Source of the DNA: Achromobacter insuavis
GTDB lineage: Bacteria > Pseudomonadota > Gammaproteobacteria > Burkholderiales > Burkholderiaceae_B
Direction of reading: 5' to 3'
Assembly: GCF_902859645.1 (NCBI RefSeq)
Contig: NZ_CADIJR010000007.1
Coordinates: forward strand, 1-64,000
DNA length: 64,000 nucleotides
The notes under the pieces are model-generated. The model searched no databases. It was not told the DNA's origin and worked only from the letters and a program-made list of their open reading frames with translations. The translations under genes were made by a program, and so were the position numbers. Positions within the stretch are counted from its first letter, which is position 1, and every line of letters starts with the position of its first letter. Shown here one piece after another: positions 50,615 to 57,274 of the stretch.

Positions 50615-51655
50615 ATGGATTCGGTTACACAAGCCGTGCTGGGCGCGGGCATACAGGGGGCGCTGCTGGGGCGCGTGCAGGGGCGCCGGGCGCTGATCTA
50701 CGGCGCCGCGCTGGCGACGGTGCCGGACCTGGACGTGCTGATGCGCTACCCGGATCCGGTGTCGCTGATGACCTACCATCGCGGCTTCTCGCACTCGATC
50801 TTCGTGCTGACCGGCCTGGCGCTGCTGCTGACCTGGCTGATACGCAAGTACTGGCCGCAGGCCCCCTATAGCGGCAGGCGATTGTTCCTGACGCTGTGGC
50901 TGGTATTGGTGACGCATCCATTGCTGGACGCCTTCACCGTCTATGGCACGCAGTTGTTCTGGCCGCTGCCATCGATCCCGGAAAGCTGGGCGGCGGTCTT
51001 CATCATCGACCCGGTCTACACCGTGCCGCTGCTGCTGGCGTCGGTCTACGCGATCATCGCGGGCATGACGCGCAACGCCCGGCGCTTCCTGGCCGGGGCG
51101 CTGATCTTCAGCACCGCCTATCTGGGGTTCGGCCTGGCCGGCCGCCTCGCCGCCGAGCACCGGGTGCGCGACGCGATGCAGGCGCAGGGCATTGCCGTCA
51201 CCGAGCTGCGGGCAGTCCCCATGCCGCTCAACACGCTGCTGTGGCGCGTCATCGCCAAGACGCCCGACGGCCATTACTACGAGGCCGTCAGCAGCTGGTT
51301 CGATCGCGAGCCGCCGGAATGGCTGCGCCAGCCGCTGCATCCGGAACTGGGCCAGGCGCTGGCGGGCGTGCCGCTGCACCAGCGCCTGCGCTGGTTCACC
51401 GACGACTGGCTGCGCTATGACGCGATGGGCGATGCGCTGGTGGTGACCGATCTGCGCATGGGCATGGCGGGCCACTACAACTTCCGCTTCAAGATGGCCG
51501 AGCGCGGACCCGACGGCAACTGGCGGCCGGTGACCCCGTCCAGCTGGCCGGGCGAGCGGGGCGGCTGGGCCGAACTCAAGCTGGTGCTGGCGCGCATCCT
51601 GCATGCCCAGCCGCCGCTGCCGTTGGCGCAATGGGCGGACACCGCCACGCGCTAG
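50615..51655 (+). CDS. YdjM/DUF457-like metal-dependent membrane hydrolase
   Basis: Inner-membrane protein of 346 residues. The N-terminal half has four or five helices and the family motifs TVPDLDVLMRY, YHRGFSHSIFVL and THPLLDAFTVYGTQ, whose His and Asp residues form a presumed metal site. The C-terminal 140 residues are soluble and include WRVIAKTPDGHYYEAVSSWF. NCBI-type names call such proteins metal-dependent hydrolase; no activity is firmly known to me. GGAG five bases before the ATG. Followed by a strong terminator. Confidence 0.87.
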   Translation: MDSVTQAVLGAGIQGALLGRVQGRRALIYGAALATVPDLDVLMRYPDPVSLMTYHRGFSHSIFVLTGLALLLTWLIRKYWPQAPYSGRRLFLTLWLVLVTHPLLDAFTVYGTQLFWPLPSIPESWAAVFIIDPVYTVPLLLASVYAIIAGMTRNARRFLAGALIFSTAYLGFGLAGRLAAEHRVRDAMQAQGIAVTELRAVPMPLNTLLWRVIAKTPDGHYYEAVSSWFDREPPEWLRQPLHPELGQALAGVPLHQRLRWFTDDWLRYDAMGDALVVTDLRMGMAGHYNFRFKMAERGPDGNWRPVTPSSWPGERGGWAELKLVLARILHAQPPLPLAQWADTATR

Positions 51656-51675
51656 ACCGGCCTTCGAGCCCCGAT

Positions 51676-51701
51676 ACCCGCCGCGATCCGGCGGGTTTTT
51701 T
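51676..51701 (+). terminator. Terminator of the YdjM-like gene
   Basis: ACCCGCCG (51676-51683) pairs with CGGCGGGT (51689-51696), followed by TTTTTT. Confidence 0.92.
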
Positions 51702-51777
51702 CATGCCCCGCCGCGGCGCCGGGATGAGTCCGTATTGACCGTCCGTCCGGCCCTGCATTATTCTTGTTCGATATTAA

Positions 51778-51803
51778 GGAACAGTAGTTCCGTTTTGTGG
51801 AAC
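51778..51803. promoter_or_regulatory. IclR-type operator ahead of the regulator gene
   Basis: GGAAC-AGTA-GTTCC-GTTTTGT-GGAAC gives three alternating half-sites (51778-51782, 51787-51791, 51799-51803). The GGAA/TTCC pattern suits IclR-family regulators. It ends 5 bases before the start codon, so binding would block translation-start transcription: likely autorepression. Confidence 0.55.
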
Positions 51804-51808
51804 ATTGA

Positions 51809-52576
51809 ATGAGTATTCTCGACGGCGTCCAACGCGTGCTGGCGCTTTATGCGGAAGGCGCGGCGGAGCTCAGCTTCACCGACGTGGCGCAGCGGCTGTC
51901 CATGCCCAAGAGCACGGCATCGCGCCTGCTCAACCAGATGCAGCACTACGGCATGCTGGACCAGGACGCGGCCTCGCGCCGCTACCGTCCCGGCCTGCTG
52001 CTGTCGCAGGCGGTGCGAGCCGGCCTGGCGGCGACGCCGCTGGATGAGGCCTGCCGCAAGGTGCTGGCGCGCCTGTCCGCCGACAGCGGCCTGACCGCCT
52101 ATCTGTCCACCCTGAACCAGCGCGAAACCGTGGTGCTGCAGCGCCTGAATGGTTCGCACCCGGTGCAGGTGCTGTCGCCGCCCGGCTCGCGCCGCGCCGC
52201 CTCGGGCACGGCGATGGGGCGGGCGCTGCTGTCGCGCCTGAGCCAGGCCGAGTTCGACGCGCTCTATGGCGCCGATCCGGCGCAGTCGCTGCCGATGGAA
52301 GGCAAGGATTGTCCGGCCACCGTCGGCGAACTGGCCCAGCGCGTGGCGCAGACCCGCGCCGACCATTACGGCGTCGCCATCGACCAGGCGATGCCCGGCA
52401 TCGGCGCCGTGGCGGCGGCCGTGCGCGATCCGTCCAGCGGCGAACTGCGCGGCCTGTGCCTGTCCTTCGTGTCGTTCCAGGTCGACGCGGTCCGCGTGGC
52501 CGCGTTGCGCGATGCCCTGACGCAGCAGGTCGCCGCGCTGGGGCGCGAACTGAACGATCCCTACTGGCTGGACTGA
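51809..52576 (+). CDS. IclR family transcriptional regulator
   Basis: 255 residues. N-terminal winged helix with a recognition helix in FTDVAQRLSMPKSTASRLLN (about 22-44), then the IclR effector domain (75-250) with SPPGSRRAASGTAMGRALLS and DHYGVAIDQAMPGIGAVAA. Followed 88 bases later by the pepE-DUF1177-aroM-Bug operon, which it presumably regulates in response to the pathway substrate. Only GTGGAA precedes the ATG, overlapping the operator. Confidence 0.93.
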   Translation: MSILDGVQRVLALYAEGAAELSFTDVAQRLSMPKSTASRLLNQMQHYGMLDQDAASRRYRPGLLLSQAVRAGLAATPLDEACRKVLARLSADSGLTAYLSTLNQRETVVLQRLNGSHPVQVLSPPGSRRAASGTAMGRALLSRLSQAEFDALYGADPAQSLPMEGKDCPATVGELAQRVAQTRADHYGVAIDQAMPGIGAVAAAVRDPSSGELRGLCLSFVSFQVDAVRVAALRDALTQQVAALGRELNDPYWLD

Positions 52577-52664
52577 CGCCCCGGCCCGATCCTTTTTACC
52601 GATTCCCGCTATCCGGCCGCGTTCGCGCGGCACTCCGACTTACCGAATCCACGGAACCTTGCAC

Positions 52665-53369
52665 ATGAACCTTCTGCTCCTCAGCAATTCCAGCAGCGAC
52701 GCCGGCTACCTGGTGCACGCCTTGCCCGACATCCGCGAACTGATCGCCACGCTGCCGGCCGGCGCGCCGGCGGTGTTCGTGCCGTACGCCGGCGTCACCC
52801 GCGACTGGGACGACTACACCACGCTGGTGGTGTCGGCGCTGGCCGACACCGGGCTGGACATCCAGGGCCTGCACCGCGCCGCCGATCCGGCGGCCGCGCT
52901 GGAACAGGCCGCGGTCATCATCGTCGGCGGCGGCAACACCTTCAACCTGCTCGGCCAGCTGCGCCGCCAGGGCCTGCTGAGCGTGGTGGCGCGCCGCGTG
53001 CGCGAAGGCGCCGCCTACCTGGGCTGGAGCGCCGGCTCCAACCTGGCCTGCCCCAGCATCTGCACCACCAACGACATGCCGATCACCGATCCCGAAGGCT
53101 TCGACGCGCTCGGCCTGCTGTCCTTCCAGATCAATCCGCACTACACCAACGCCCATCCTCCCGGCCACCGCGGCGAAACCCGCGCGCAGCGCCTGGCCGA
53201 ATTCTGCACGCTGAACCCAACCATGCCGGTCCTGGGCCTGCCCGAAGGCGCCGCGCTGCGCGTGCGCGATGCCGCCATCACGCTGGTCGGCCCGCATGAC
53301 GCGACCCTGTTCCTGGGCGGCAACGAGCCGCGCGTGTTCCAGCCCGGCGTCCTGGAGATCCCGGCATGA
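52665..53369 (+). CDS. Peptidase E-like aspartyl dipeptidase (S51 family)
   Basis: Serine peptidase of 234 residues in the PepE family, which removes N-terminal Asp from Asp-Xaa dipeptides. The triad is in the expected places: Ser122 in GWSAGSNLACP, Asp137 in TTNDMPI and His159 in QINPHYTNAHPPGHRGETR. GGGNTFNLLGQLRRQGL is the other family signature. The ATG at 52665 is preferred to a TTG six bases upstream. It overlaps DUF1177 by 4 bases (ATGA). In this setting its substrate may be a peptide or amide tied to the operon rather than general dipeptides. Confidence 0.85.
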   Translation: MNLLLLSNSSSDAGYLVHALPDIRELIATLPAGAPAVFVPYAGVTRDWDDYTTLVVSALADTGLDIQGLHRAADPAAALEQAAVIIVGGGNTFNLLGQLRRQGLLSVVARRVREGAAYLGWSAGSNLACPSICTTNDMPITDPEGFDALGLLSFQINPHYTNAHPPGHRGETRAQRLAEFCTLNPTMPVLGLPEGAALRVRDAAITLVGPHDATLFLGGNEPRVFQPGVLEIPA

Positions 53370-54295
53370 AACAGGTCATCGATACCATCGAGCTGCTGTC
53401 CTCGGCCCATGTCACGGGCGAGGCGGTGGCGCAGGTCCTGCGCGAGGCCGGCCATTGTGAAGTCGAGGTCACGCGGCTCGGGCGCGACGGCCTGTCCACC
53501 GACTTTCTTTCCATCGTCATTCCCGGTTCCGACGCGAACGCGCCGCAGTTGGGCATCGTCGGCCGCCTGGGCGGCATCGGCGCGCGTCCGGCCGTCACCG
53601 GCCTGGTGTCCGACAGCGATGGCGCCGTGGTCGCCGTCGCCACCGCGCTCAAGCTGATGGCCATGGCGCGCCAGGGCGACGTGCTGCCCGGCACCGTGCG
53701 CATCCGCACCCACATCTGCCCGCGCGCCGGCACCCGGCCGCACCACCCGGTGCCGATGATGCGCTCGCCGTTCCCGATGCGCGAAATGATGTCGCACGAA
53801 GTCGATCCGCGCATGGACGCGATCCTGTCGGTCGACACCACCCGCGGCAACCGCCTGGTGAACCAGCGCGGCGTGGCGCTGACGCCCGTGGCCAAGCAGG
53901 GTTACCTGCTGCGCATTCCCGAGACCATGCTGGACGTGCTGGGCTGGGTCAGCGGCCAGCTGCCCCTGACGCTGCCGTTGACCACGCAGGACATCACGCC
54001 CTACGAGAACGGCCTGTGGCACGTCAATTCGCTGATGCAGCCGGCCATTGTCACCGACGCGCCGGTGGTGGGCGTGGCGCTGACCGCGCAGACCGCCGTG
54101 CCCGGCTGCGCCACCGGCGTGACCAACGCGGTCGACGCCGACGTCGCCATGCGCTTCTGCATCGAGATCGCCAAGCTGTTCGGTCAGGGCGCGATGACCT
54201 TCTTCGACGCTGCCGAATGGGGCGCGTTGCAGGCCCGCTACGGCTCGATGGCGCACCTGCAGACCACCGGCCAGGAACCCGGGGGCGCGCAATGA
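53366..54295 (+). CDS. DUF1177 family protein
   Basis: 309 residues, no signal peptide. Recognised by conserved patches such as SIVIPGSDANAPQLGIVGRL, THICPRAGTRPHHPVPMM and QTAVPGCATGVTNAVDADVA (each within 20). Several His, Asp and Cys residues (ICPRAGTRPHH, VPGCATG) could form a metal or catalytic site. Function is unknown to me. It is translationally coupled to pepE before it and aroM after it (4-base ATGA overlaps both sides), so it is an integral part of one pathway. Confidence 0.82.
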   Translation: MKQVIDTIELLSSAHVTGEAVAQVLREAGHCEVEVTRLGRDGLSTDFLSIVIPGSDANAPQLGIVGRLGGIGARPAVTGLVSDSDGAVVAVATALKLMAMARQGDVLPGTVRIRTHICPRAGTRPHHPVPMMRSPFPMREMMSHEVDPRMDAILSVDTTRGNRLVNQRGVALTPVAKQGYLLRIPETMLDVLGWVSGQLPLTLPLTTQDITPYENGLWHVNSLMQPAIVTDAPVVGVALTAQTAVPGCATGVTNAVDADVAMRFCIEIAKLFGQGAMTFFDAAEWGALQARYGSMAHLQTTGQEPGGAQ

Positions 54296-54981
54296 GCGCG
54301 CCCAAACCGCGCCGCGTGGCGTTCTTCACCATCGGCCAGTCGCCGCGCAGCGACGTGGTGCCCGAGATGGCGCCGTTGCTGGGCGCGCACGTGCGCATCG
54401 ACGAATTCGGCGCGCTCGACGGCCTGGACGCCGCGGCGCTGGCCGCGCTGGCGCCGCGACCCGGTGAATACCGCTTCGCCACGCGCATGCGTGATGGCAG
54501 CCAGATCGAGCTGGACGCCGCCGCCGCCGAGGCCCGCCTGGCGCAGGTGATGCGCGAGGCCGACGCCGCCGGCTACGACCTGCTGGTGCCGCTGTGCACC
54601 GGCACCGCGATCGCGCCGATGCGCACGCTGGTGGTCGAGCCGCAGCAGGTGGTCGACCATCTGGTCGCCGGCCTGTCGCAGCACAGCCGCAAGGTCGGGC
54701 TGGTGGTGCCGCTGGAGGCGCAGGTCGACGCCTTCCACATGGCCGTGCCGCTGGAATGCCCGGCGGTGGTGGTGCATGCCTCGCCCTACGAAACGGACGC
54801 GGCGCGCGCGGCCGCCAATTTCACGCAGGCCGGCCGCGAATTGGCCGACTGCGATTTCATCGTCATGCATTGCATGGGTTACGCCGAACGCATGCGCCAG
54901 GCCGTGGCGCAGGCTTCGGGCCGCCCGGTCCTGCTGTCGAATCGTGTCGTCGCGCAGATGCTTGCGCAAATACTGGAATAA
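54292..54981 (+). CDS. AroM family protein (Asp/Glu-racemase-like)
   Basis: 229 residues starting with the AroM signature FFTIGQSPRSDVVPEM. Two short Cys motifs, Cys102 in VPLCTGTAI and Cys194 in VMHCMGYAER, are placed about 90 residues apart like the paired catalytic Cys of Asp/Glu/hydantoin racemases. A role as racemase, lyase or isomerase is inference; E. coli AroM itself has no proven function. It overlaps DUF1177 by 4 bases and precedes the Bug binding protein by 13 bases. Confidence 0.8.
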   Translation: MSAPKPRRVAFFTIGQSPRSDVVPEMAPLLGAHVRIDEFGALDGLDAAALAALAPRPGEYRFATRMRDGSQIELDAAAAEARLAQVMREADAAGYDLLVPLCTGTAIAPMRTLVVEPQQVVDHLVAGLSQHSRKVGLVVPLEAQVDAFHMAVPLECPAVVVHASPYETDAARAAANFTQAGRELADCDFIVMHCMGYAERMRQAVAQASGRPVLLSNRVVAQMLAQILE

Positions 54982-54994
54982 GGGAATCCACTTC

Positions 54995-55984
54995 ATGTTC
55001 AGCCGTAGTTTGCAACGCGCCGCGGGCGCACTGTTCGTCGTCAGCACCCTGGCGGCCGCGCCGGCCATGGCCGCGGATGCCTGGAAGCCGACCAAGCCGG
55101 TGCGCCTGCTGGTCGGTTTCGCGCCCGGCGGCTCCGCCGACACGCTGGCGCGCCTGCTGGCCGAGCCGCTGTCGCAGCGCCTGGGCCAGACGGTCGTGGT
55201 CGAGAACCTGGCGGGCGCGGGCGGCAACATCATGGCGTACCGCCTGTCGCAATCGCAGCCCGATGGCTACACCATCGGCATCGCCGCGGCCGGCTCCATG
55301 GCCATCACCCACGTGCTCAACGCCAAGGGCACCAGCTACAAGCCGACCGACTTCACGCCCATCACGCTGGCCGCGGTGCAGCCCAACGTGGTCATCGTCA
55401 ACAAGGACGTGCCGGCCAACAACCTGGCCGAGCTGAAGGACTACTTCCAGAAGACGCCGACCGCCACCTACGGCACCGCCGGTGTGGGCATTTCCAACCA
55501 CCTGATCGCCGAGACCATGCTGTATAAGCTGGGCGTGAAGGTGCCGCACGCGGCCTACCGTGGCGCGGCCCCGGTCATCACCGACCTGCTGGGCGGCCAC
55601 ATCGCGATGACGATGGACAACATCTCCACTGCCGCGCCGCTGGCGCTGCAGGGCAAGGTCAAGGCCATTGGCGTGGCCTCGCTCAAGCGCTCGCCGCAAT
55701 TGCCCAACGTGCCCACGCTCGACGAGCAGGGCCTGAAGGGCTTCGACATGCCGACCTGGCAGGGCGTGTTCGCCCCGGCCGGCCTGCCGGCGGACGTGCT
55801 GGCCGCCTACTACGCGGCGCTGCAGGACGTGCTCAAGCAGCCGTCGGTGATCGAGAAGATGGCCGGCCTGGGTTCGGAACCGGTCAGCGGCATGACGCCC
55901 GAGAAGTTCGGCCAGTTCCTGGAGAACGACCGCAAGCAATGGGCCGACATCGTGCGCGCCGCCAACATCAGCCTGGAACAATAA
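54995..55984 (+). CDS. Bug/TctC-type tripartite tricarboxylate-transport binding protein
   Basis: Periplasmic receptor of 329 residues; the signal peptide is cleaved after AMA near residue 26. The mature protein has KPVRLLVGFAPGGSADTLAR, a TctC hallmark that binds a carboxylate, and YGTAGVGISNHLIAE later. No TctA/TctB membrane genes adjoin, as is common for the expanded Bug families of Bordetella relatives. AAGGGA before the ATG. It closes the IclR-controlled operon, so the ligand is probably its substrate, perhaps a dicarboxylic amino acid or peptide. A bidirectional terminator follows. Confidence 0.9.
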   Translation: MFSRSLQRAAGALFVVSTLAAAPAMAADAWKPTKPVRLLVGFAPGGSADTLARLLAEPLSQRLGQTVVVENLAGAGGNIMAYRLSQSQPDGYTIGIAAAGSMAITHVLNAKGTSYKPTDFTPITLAAVQPNVVIVNKDVPANNLAELKDYFQKTPTATYGTAGVGISNHLIAETMLYKLGVKVPHAAYRGAAPVITDLLGGHIAMTMDNISTAAPLALQGKVKAIGVASLKRSPQLPNVPTLDEQGLKGFDMPTWQGVFAPAGLPADVLAAYYAALQDVLKQPSVIEKMAGLGSEPVSGMTPEKFGQFLENDRKQWADIVRAANISLEQ

Positions 55985-56022
55985 GGCCACCGCGCGCGCC
56001 GGCCTTGGCGGGCGCCGCAAAC

Positions 56023-56055
56023 AAAAACGCCAGACTCGCGTCTGGCGTTTTTTTT
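56023..56055. terminator. Bidirectional terminator between the Bug and coaBC genes
   Basis: AAAAACGCCAGAC (56023-56035) pairs with GTCTGGCGTTTTT (56040-56052) with further Ts; A-rich on the other side. Confidence 0.93.
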
Positions 56056-56077
56056 GGCCCGGACGAACGCGGGCGTG

Positions 56078-57274
56078 TCAGGTCGGCAGCCGGGCCGCGA
56101 TCTCGGCGATCAGGCGGCGCGCGGCATCGAGCTTGTCGGCGGCCGGCAGCGGGTGCGCGCCCTGCGCGTCGAACAGCACCAGTTCGGTGGTGTCGGCGTC
56201 CATCACCTTGTGCGCCAGGTTGCCCACCAGGAGCGGGATGCCCTTGCGCTGGCGCTTGGCCTCGGCGTGCTCGGCCAGCTTCTCGGTCTCGGCGGCAAAG
56301 CCCACGCACCACGGGCCGTCCGGCAGCTTGGCCACTTCGGCCAGGATGTCGGGGTTGGGTTCGAATTCCATCTGCGGCGCGCCGCCGCCTTCGCTGGTCT
56401 TCTTCAGCTTCTGGTTGCTGACGTTCTTGACGCGCCAGTCGGCCACGGCCGCCACGGCGATGAAGATGTCGGCATCGGCGGCGCTGGCCATCACCGCGTC
56501 GTGCATCTGCCGCGCCGTCATCACCGACAGGGCGGTGACGCCGCGCGGCACGGGCAGGGCGGTGGCGCCGGTGATCAGCGTGACGCGGGCGCCGGCCTCG
56601 CGCGCGGCCCGCGCCAGGGCGTAGCCGGTCTTGCCCGACGAGCGGTTGCTCAGCACGCGCACCGGGTCGACCGGCTCGGACGTGGGGCCGGCGGTCAGCA
56701 GCACGTGGCGGCCGGCCAGCAGCTTGGGCTGGAAGAAGGCGATCAGGTCGGTCAGGATTTCATGGGCTTCGAGCATGCGCCCGTCGCCGGTCTCGCCACA
56801 GGCCTGTTCGCCGGCTGACGGGCCCAGGATGCTGATGCCGTCGGCGCGCAGTTGCGCCACGTTGCGCTGGGTGGCCGGGTTGGCCCACATCTCGCGGTTC
56901 ATGGCGGGCGCCACCAGCAGCGGGCAGGCGCGCGCCACGCACAGCGTCGACAGCAGGTCGTCGGCCATGCCGTGGGCCAGCTTGGCCATGAAGTCGGTGC
57001 TGGCCGGCGCGATCAGCACGGCGTCGGCGCCGCGCGTCAGGTCGATGTGCGCCATGTTGTTGGGCACCCGCGGGTCCCAGGCATCGACGAACACCGGGCG
57101 GCCGGACAGGGCCTGCATCGTCACCGGCGTGATGAAGTGCGTGGCCGCTTCGGTCATCACCACGTCGACGACGGCGCCTTGTTCGGTCATGCGCCGCACC
57201 AGCTCGGCGATTTTGTAGCAGGCGATGCCGCCGGTCAGGCCGAGGACGATGCGTTTGCGGGCGAGGTCGAGCAT
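56078..57274 (-). CDS. coaBC: Bifunctional phosphopantothenoylcysteine decarboxylase/phosphopantothenate-cysteine ligase
   Basis: Two-step coenzyme A enzyme of 398 residues. CoaC (N-terminal, FMN) has His76 in NNMAHIDL, PAMNREMW at 123-130 and Cys159 in GEQACGETGDGRM. CoaB (about 190-398) opens VLLTAGPTSEPVDPVRVLSN and has the Lys of NQKLKK. Leftward transcription; a terminator for lspA lies just upstream, so coaBC has its own promoter within 57275-57383. It ends 26 bases before the bidirectional terminator. Confidence 0.95.
   Translation of the reverse strand: MLDLARKRIVLGLTGGIACYKIAELVRRMTEQGAVVDVVMTEAATHFITPVTMQALSGRPVFVDAWDPRVPNNMAHIDLTRGADAVLIAPASTDFMAKLAHGMADDLLSTLCVARACPLLVAPAMNREMWANPATQRNVAQLRADGISILGPSAGEQACGETGDGRMLEAHEILTDLIAFFQPKLLAGRHVLLTAGPTSEPVDPVRVLSNRSSGKTGYALARAAREAGARVTLITGATALPVPRGVTALSVMTARQMHDAVMASAADADIFIAVAAVADWRVKNVSNQKLKKTSEGGGAPQMEFEPNPDILAEVAKLPDGPWCVGFAAETEKLAEHAEAKRQRKGIPLLVGNLAHKVMDADTTELVLFDAQGAHPLPAADKLDAARRLIAEIAARLPT

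What the first reader, a model, noticed from the sequence alone, without database searches (positions are those of the whole stretch)
51778..55984. Uncharacterised IclR-pepE-DUF1177-aroM-Bug operon
Four genes, three joined by 4-base overlaps, follow an IclR gene with its own operator. A peptidase E homologue with full triad, DUF1177 of unknown function, an AroM protein with racemase-like Cys pair, and a carboxylate receptor suggest uptake and breakdown of an acidic amino-acid derivative or dipeptide, perhaps a D-amino-acid-containing one. I know of no described pathway with this set.
Basis: inference. Interest (0 to 1): 0.7.

Follow-up and report, generated by a model that had tools for sequence, protein, structure and literature searches.

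The report
Unstudied peptide-scavenging operon with DUF1177
A bacterial gene set that probably lets Achromobacter take in and break down an acidic, peptide-derived compound, built around a protein of unknown function that keeps similar partners in other bacteria and an archaeon; the exact compound is not yet known.

Summary
Window 51778-55984 (Achromobacter) holds IclR > PepE > DUF1177 > AroM > Bug. Two 4-base overlaps join PepE-DUF1177-AroM; an operator, GGAAC-N4-GTTCC-N7-GGAAC, lies before IclR. The order recurs in 28 of 30 relatives fetched by DUF1177. DUF1177 and AroM form a real module: in a 101-genome family sample all 10 full-length AroM genes (9 genomes) lie beside DUF1177. Elsewhere DUF1177, usually with AroM, sits with OPT or peptide-ABC importers and with PepE, M29, M20 or M17 peptidases, sometimes with racemases, DUF917 or HyuA, as on Klebsiella and Sodalis plasmids, in Bacilli and in a haloarchaeon. 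Six of nine OPT-type operons tested share the operator core; this genome's own OPT-type copy does not. PepE keeps its catalytic triad; AroM keeps both racemase cysteines, which three AroM-LuxR fusions elsewhere have lost. Best reading: an IclR-controlled catabolic operon for an acidic peptide-derived compound whose alpha carbon needs epimerising, perhaps a cyclised or D-containing Asp-X dipeptide; PepE makes the last cut, and DUF1177 is probably a new hydrolase. DUF1177's structure could not be predicted (queue full at all 25 tries), so its chemistry and the substrate are inference. Novelty: new variant of a known kind.

The parts
51735..51764 (+). promoter-like site TTGACC-18-TATTCT
   Evidence: only sigma-70-like match in 51600-56150, shuffle mean 0.3; TATTCT upstream of IclR in 23 of 30 relatives
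51778..51803 (.). operator GGAAC-N4-GTTCC-N7-GGAAC, three half-sites downstream of the promoter-like site
   Evidence: one match in the window, 0 in 100 shuffles; full triple site upstream of IclR in 28 of 33 Bug-type loci incl. the window; GTTCC-N7-GGAAC 41 times in 746,641 bases of 42 loci, all 41 within 130 nt upstream of these IclR genes, 35 of 42 loci having one
51809..52576 (+). IclR-family regulator
   Evidence: IclR_C 60.2 bits, HTH_IclR 46.2 bits
52665..53369 (+). PepE, alpha-aspartyl dipeptidase (S51) with Ser122-His159-Glu194 triad
   Evidence: NCBIfam PepE equivalog 307 bits (cut-off 156); PDB 1fy2 E 5e-73
53366..54295 (+). DUF1177 protein (PF06675), core of the module; invariant D83, D85, H116, N162, D209, N215, H219, E267
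   Evidence: 385 bits; 17 sequences, 39-82% identity to the window protein; no PDB relative by sequence
54292..54981 (+). AroM protein (PF07302), racemase-like with two cysteines (C102, C194)
   Evidence: profile matches hydantoin racemase 2eq5 (E 0.0099) with both Cys aligned
54995..55984 (+). Bug/TctC periplasmic carboxylate-binding protein (signal peptide read by eye); no TctA match on this contig
   Evidence: best PDB matches terephthalate-binding protein, BugD and 2dvz; 7 TctA matches in the genome, none on contig C7
56025..56055 (.). hairpin with T run between Bug (+) and the dfp/coaBC gene (-), possible terminator
   Evidence: read from the sequence; the scan lists it on the - strand at 56043-56025; terminator-like sites in the stretch are not more than shuffles give (3 vs mean 2.3)

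Best explanation
This is an IclR-controlled catabolic operon for an acidic, peptide-derived small molecule. IclR binds the operator 51778-51803 beside its own promoter and, when the inducer appears, releases the five genes (shown: the site and its conservation; inferred: binding and repression). Bug binds the carboxylate compound in the periplasm and hands it to an unlinked TctAB-type membrane pair (inferred). DUF1177 and AroM then make the compound fit for PepE: AroM, a two-cysteine enzyme, inverts the alpha carbon of an Asp-like residue or its ring, and DUF1177 hydrolyses an amide or opens the ring (both inferred). PepE cuts the resulting L-Asp-X dipeptide (activity established for the family, substrate here inferred). 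The likeliest substrates are cyclised or D-residue-containing Asp-X dipeptides, such as cyclo(Asp-X) or an aspartimide. I give about 0.7 to the module-level statement and about 0.25 to that substrate class.
For: Gene order, overlaps and operator. AroM with DUF1177 in 28 of 30 and 14 of 20 loci, OPT in 12 of those 20. Klebsiella and Sodalis plasmids IclR>OPT>DUF1177>AroM>PepE>racemase; Niallia OPT, DUF917 (in two pieces), DUF1177, AroM, M29-like; Salinigranum ABC importer>DUF917>DUF1177>AroM>M29>racemase>AstE; Paenibacillus peptide ABC+ArgE/DapE-type deacylase+DUF1177+AroM. All 10 full-length AroM genes of the 101-genome sample beside DUF1177. GTTCC-N7-GGAAC before IclR in Bug-type and in 6 of 9 OPT-type operons. 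PepE triad. AroM Cys pair kept in 12 of 12 module AroMs and in 2 of 2 unfused AroMs of the HyuA-type loci, lost in 3 of 3 AroM-LuxR fusions. Differences among relatives mostly at third codon positions in all five genes. AroM, DUF917, OPT enriched in CDO-like clusters (PMC11055893, passages).
Against: No activity or substrate is shown by anything here. DUF1177 has no relative of known structure by sequence and no similarity to one M20 or one M42 protein; its fold was not predicted. PepE is not constant: 11 of 20 other loci, including this genome's second copy, lack it within 6 kb. A. pulmonis LMG 26696 keeps IclR, PepE and DUF1177 but has lost AroM and Bug and has no AroM elsewhere. Six of 20 loci have DUF1177 without AroM. 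This genome's OPT-type copy and the Klebsiella and Sodalis operons lack the exact operator core. Bug may bind a non-peptide carboxylate: its best PDB match is a terephthalate-binding protein.
Confidence: 0.6

Rival explanations
1. Hydantoin-type pathway: the compound is a hydantoin or imidazolidine-like ring (from purines, thiohydantoins or N-carbamoyl amino acids); AroM is a hydantoin racemase and DUF1177 replaces DUF917/HyuA as ring opener.
For: AroM profile hits hydantoin racemase 2eq5; four AroM loci without DUF1177 have a HyuA-type gene in 4 of 4 and DUF917 by name in 3 of 4; DUF917 or HyuA near DUF1177 in some loci; PMC11055893 suggests hydantoin or allantoin links (passages).
Against: No hydantoinase or carbamoylase family among the five genes; an aspartyl dipeptidase, M29, M17 and oligopeptide importers have no obvious place in it.
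Confidence: 0.2
2. Plain scavenging of linear acidic (D/L) dipeptides or D-Asp/D-Glu: AroM racemises the free amino acid after PepE cleavage, and DUF1177 is another peptidase or deacylase.
For: Peptidases and peptide importers recur; class V aminotransferase in 3 of 20 loci; close Bug relatives in the PDB include BugD.
Against: Plain L-dipeptides need neither AroM nor DUF1177: E. coli has an active PepE (PMC9239234, passages) and, as a control genome, no DUF1177 match, though it does have an AroM-family gene.
Confidence: 0.2
3. Detoxification of a peptide-like antibiotic, as the S51 enzyme MccG does for microcin C.
For: MccG is an S51 peptidase (PMC9239234, passages).
Against: Same paper: overexpressed E. 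coli PepE gives no McC protection; the window enzyme has Glu in the triad, not the Asp of clade V; import proteins and IclR control fit use as food.
Confidence: 0.04
4. Chance cluster of unrelated genes.
For: None found.
Against: Order conserved in 28 of 30 loci, also in G428 and in an alphaproteobacterium; AroM-DUF1177 linkage P about 5e-12, uncorrected for relatedness.
Confidence: 0.01

Closest known systems
Non-CDPS cyclodipeptide-oxidase-like gene clusters (PMC11055893, passages read)
   Same: AroM, OPT or peptide-ABC importers, peptidases and Asp/Glu/hydantoin racemases recur, here in relatives if not in the window
   Different: No CDO gene among the five window genes; DUF1177 is not mentioned in that paper's main text; DUF917 absent from the window operon
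PepE alpha-aspartyl dipeptidase (S51)
   Same: Family and triad; PDB 1fy2 at 248.6 bits over residues 1-226
   Different: Here joined by a 4-base overlap to DUF1177 in an IclR-headed gene set
AroM of the enterobacterial aroL-yaiA-aroM unit
   Same: Same Pfam family
   Different: The Enterobacter copy examined lacks the first racemase Cys and has no DUF1177 within 6 kb
Bug (TctC) receptors such as BugD and the terephthalate-binding protein TBP
   Same: Family; PDB matches at E 1e-58 to 1e-61
   Different: No TctA on the same contig; ligand unknown

Membership tests
PepE dipeptidase (S51) | Ser-His-Glu triad | tested here: met
   S122, H159, E194 invariant in 11 of 11
PepE dipeptidase (S51) | NCBIfam equivalog cut-off | tested here: met
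   307 vs 156 bits
PepE dipeptidase (S51) | hydrolysis of L-Asp-X | not testable with these tools
   needs an enzyme assay
AroM (PF07302) | Pfam cut-off | tested here: met
   203.5 vs 23.8 bits; NCBIfam PRK10481 just at its cut-off, 198 vs 198
Asp/Glu/hydantoin racemase superfamily | two catalytic-position cysteines | tested here: met
   C102 and C194 in 12 of 12, aligned with Cys of 2eq5
Asp/Glu/hydantoin racemase superfamily | fold | not tested
   not folded here; PMC11055893 states that predicted AroM structures are nearly identical to these racemases (passage)
DUF1177 (PF06675) | Pfam cut-off | tested here: met
   385.1 vs 25 bits
Metallo-hydrolase of M20/M42 type (considered for DUF1177) | detectable profile similarity | tested here: inconclusive
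   one M20 and one M42 single sequence, no meaningful alignment; no PDB relative. Single sequences make a weak test
Tripartite tricarboxylate transporter | TctA linked to the receptor | tested here: not met
   7 TctA matches, none on contig C7 (136,713 bases); TctB not searched
Cyclodipeptide-oxidase-like cluster | CDO gene present | tested here: not met
   none among the five operon genes; relatives were not searched for CDO

The most novel reading that the evidence does not exclude
DUF1177 is a new family of amide or lactam hydrolases that opens cyclic dipeptides (or a related peptide-derived ring), with AroM as its dedicated ring epimerase: a salvage route for cyclised, racemised peptide waste that moves between bacteria and archaea, and whose AroM fold has also been recruited as the ligand-sensing part of LuxR-type regulators.
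Probability: 0.22. Interest if true: 0.75.

Novelty: new variant of a known kind. Interest (0 to 1): 0.5.

Why it matters
DUF1177 is 'of unknown function' in Pfam, has no solved relative by sequence, and only one paper of the library holds its name, in a passing remark on Arabidopsis ubiquitin ligases (passage) that is probably a slip for another DUF (my guess). Its recurring partners give a testable substrate class and would also help to assign AroM, which PMC11055893 calls not experimentally characterised. The module occurs on a plasmid typed as conjugative in Klebsiella and in a haloarchaeon, so the route may be of broad use.

Tried and rejected
Tried without result: DUF1177 profile against PDB sequences (best E 0.22, a ribonuclease P protein); DUF1177 profile against one M20 and one M42 protein; viral contigs for more DUF1177 diversity (0 relatives of 65 pattern matches); DUF1177 DNA in E. 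coli genomes (no match; a DNA search, so weak). A wider regulon in the own genome: 10 sites of GTTCC-N7-GGAAC against 4 for the reversed control. The other 9 have fewer A/T in the spacer than the window site; long open frames cross each of them, but one crosses the window site too, so this settles nothing and no wider regulon is claimed.

Considered and dropped: antibiotic resistance of the MccG kind; chance cluster; an M28/M42-like reading of DUF1177, which I thought likely from its sequence pattern but which no comparison supported.

Structure prediction of DUF1177 (alignment A3, window plus 30 search for related loci proteins) was asked for 25 times; every time the queue was full, so no model or fold search exists.

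Rows dropped before counts: L055-L059 left out (L056-L059 have the contig lengths of L022, L026, L015 and L029; L055 is one further genome with the full Bug-type set). The 42 loci leave out L055-L059, L048-L051, L062 and L066-L069. In one search the weak AroM match of G046 (25 bits, partial, no DUF1177) was left out of the hypergeometric test.
Full report
What is there. The window lies in an Achromobacter genome (G000, contig C7; DUF1177 98% identical to A. dolens). Five genes run in one direction: IclR 51809-52576, PepE 52665-53369, DUF1177 53366-54295, AroM 54292-54981, Bug 54995-55984. PepE-DUF1177 and DUF1177-AroM share ATGA, a usual sign of coupled translation. Terminator-like hairpins lie before the promoter-like site (51676-51696) and after Bug, but such hairpins are no more frequent in the stretch than in shuffles (3 found, one of them the operator itself, against a mean of 2.3). 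In 30 relatives the PepE-DUF1177 overlap is 4 bases in 30 of 30, the DUF1177-AroM overlap in 26 of 28, and in Rhodoplanes IclR overlaps PepE by 4 bases as well, which puts IclR in the same unit there (starts picked by my script). The AroM-Bug gap varies from 12 to 242 nt.

Regulation. The sequence GGAAC-AGTA-GTTCC-GTTTTGT-GGAAC at 51778-51803 lies downstream of the promoter-like site 51735-51764. The triple site is kept exactly in 28 of 33 Bug-type loci including the window, and the GGAAC-N4-GTTCC part in 29 of 33. The GTTCC-N7-GGAAC part occurs 41 times in 746,641 bases of 42 loci, all 41 within 130 nt upstream of the IclR gene of these operons; 35 of 42 loci have it and 7 do not (L014, L026, L029, L030, L003, L046, L047). 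Of nine OPT-type operons tested, six carry it (L052, L053, L054, L061, L064, L065) and three do not, among them this genome's own second copy (L003). This suggests, but does not prove, a shared inducer; IclR-family operators can look alike (recalled). The motif was picked from these loci, so the count describes it and is not an independent test.

The DUF1177 module elsewhere. DUF1177 is patchy: 10 of 101 genomes in the family sample, 3 of 398 in the phylum sample, 2 of 247 in the order of G477, one of them under the cut-off, 4 of 297 in the order of the Rhodoplanes genome, 7 of 399 in the own order; the samples share some genomes. Of 14 control genomes it rings in Haloferax volcanii and Sulfolobus acidocaldarius. 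In the 101-genome sample full-length AroM occurs in 9 genomes (10 genes), every one directly beside DUF1177; a tenth genome, G046, has only a weak partial match (25 bits) and no DUF1177. In the order sample 5 of 5 over-cut-off genes lie beside DUF1177, but four of these five are also in the family sample. The hypergeometric P of 5e-12 leaves out G046 and ignores relatedness.

Neighbourhoods (blastp labels; record annotation). All 30 loci have IclR and PepE; 28 have AroM and Bug. The two without are L015 (A. pulmonis LMG 26696, where AroM and Bug are gone between DUF1177 and dfp; another A. pulmonis record, L012, keeps them) and L031 (contig end). Of 20 other loci, 14 have AroM, 12 OPT, 11 IclR, 9 PepE, 5 a PF01177 racemase, within 6 kb on the same strand. 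This genome's second copy (L003) reads IclR > OPT > DUF1177 > AroM > DinB-like > alpha/beta hydrolase-like (the last by eye). Others: Klebsiella and Sodalis plasmids with IclR > OPT > DUF1177 > AroM > PepE > racemase; Salinigranum with an ABC importer > DUF917 > DUF1177 > AroM > M29 > racemase > AstE; Paenibacillus with peptide ABC and a deacylase; Planococcus with DUF917, HyuA/B and an aminotransferase but no AroM on the plasmid; L062 and L067 with OPT, class V aminotransferase and PepE; L064 and L065 with HyuA/B and OPT (Pfam for L064); L066 with a TRAP transporter and M17 aminopeptidase; L068 and L069 with a DcuC-type carrier and M20 beside DUF1177 (Pfam for L068 only). Six of the 20 lack AroM. 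The pattern is an importer plus DUF1177 plus some peptidase or amide hydrolase in most of the loci I looked at; it was not counted as such.

AroM. Both racemase-position cysteines are invariant in 12 of 12 aligned module AroMs, and a profile of these matches the hydantoin racemase 2eq5 with both cysteines aligned (E 0.0099). Four AroM loci without DUF1177 on alphaproteobacterial plasmids have a HyuA-type gene in 4 of 4, DUF917 by name in 3 of 4, a peptide-ABC or OPT importer by name in 2 of 4 (a third has an unnamed ABC importer), an M20-type gene in 2 of 4 and a racemase in 1 of 4 (no DUF1177 in these records). Three of these four carry AroM fused to a LuxR-type (GerE) DNA-binding domain, and all three fusions have lost both cysteines, while the two unfused AroMs there keep both. 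The simplest reading is that the enzyme binds and epimerises the pathway compound and the fusion only senses it. The Enterobacter aroL-yaiA-aroM protein lacks the first cysteine.

PepE and Bug. PepE is over the NCBIfam PepE cut-off, with Ser122, His159 and Glu194 invariant in 11 of 11, matching Ser120, His157 and Glu192 named for Salmonella PepE in PMC9239234 (passages). That paper reports that E. coli PepE hydrolyses Asp-pNA but gives no protection from microcin C. Bug is nearest in the PDB to terephthalate-binding protein, BugD and 2dvz, a 'putative exported protein'; that 2dvz is BugE, and the ligands Asp and Glu of BugD and BugE, are recalled. Its signal peptide was read by eye. No TctA match lies on contig C7.

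DUF1177. No relative in the PDB by sequence, none in NCBIfam. Across 17 sequences at 39-82% identity to the window protein, D83, D85, H116, N162, D209, N215, H219 and E267 are among the invariant residues, which is what an enzyme active site would look like, but this is inference. Structure prediction was never accepted by the machine. Comparisons with one M20 and one M42 sequence gave nothing, a weak test.

Selection and descent. In 28 to 30 relatives all five genes differ mostly at third codon positions (DUF1177: 756, 478 and 2607 differences at positions 1, 2, 3), in keeping with purifying selection; dN/dS was not computed. The ten Bug-type sequences form a clade with starred support for DUF1177 (100/100) and AroM (100/99) and unstarred for PepE (87/88), including the alphaproteobacterium Rhodoplanes and G428, in keeping with transfer as a unit. 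The program warns that long branches (L049 with the window group) may be joined falsely, and only 11 of 25, 7 of 19 and 4 of 14 inner branches are starred.

Interpretation. I go further in one respect: plain L-dipeptides would not need DUF1177 and AroM, so the compound probably carries a D or ring-bound residue. DUF917, HyuA/B and hydantoin racemases around the same AroM, and the CDO-like clusters of PMC11055893, point to a cyclic peptide derivative or hydantoin-like ring. Which one cannot be told from sequence. No description of the DUF1177 set was found in searches of an open-licence library that lacks most subscription papers.

Noticed in passing
L077:5940-6827, L079:6989-7936, L080:6986-7897: AroM domains fused to a LuxR/GerE DNA-binding domain, each without both racemase cysteines, in loci with HyuA-type genes: a racemase fold apparently turned into a sensor.
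   Followed up: partly
L015:8927-9024 (A. pulmonis LMG 26696; also L058): AroM and Bug are missing between DUF1177 and the dfp/coaBC gene, while IclR, operator, PepE and DUF1177 remain: a natural loss within the operon.
   Followed up: partly
L046 (Klebsiella pneumoniae plasmid NZ_CP057460.1): The OPT-type DUF1177 operon sits on a plasmid typed as conjugative, with transposase genes on both sides, so it is probably mobile.
   Followed up: no
L048:6909-7966 (Niallia taxi megaplasmid): The DUF917 gene beside DUF1177 is found in two separate frame pieces, perhaps broken or a sequencing error.
   Followed up: no
L003:175-2184: One long frame that by eye joins a ferredoxin/flavin reductase-like part to an M24 aminopeptidase-like part, close to the second DUF1177 operon of this genome; family not tested.
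   Followed up: no
L066:9298-10311: Luciferase-like monooxygenase between DUF1177 and an M17 aminopeptidase.
   Followed up: no
L081:5992-6666: Enterobacter AroM of the aroL-yaiA-aroM unit lacks the first racemase cysteine but keeps the second.
   Followed up: partly
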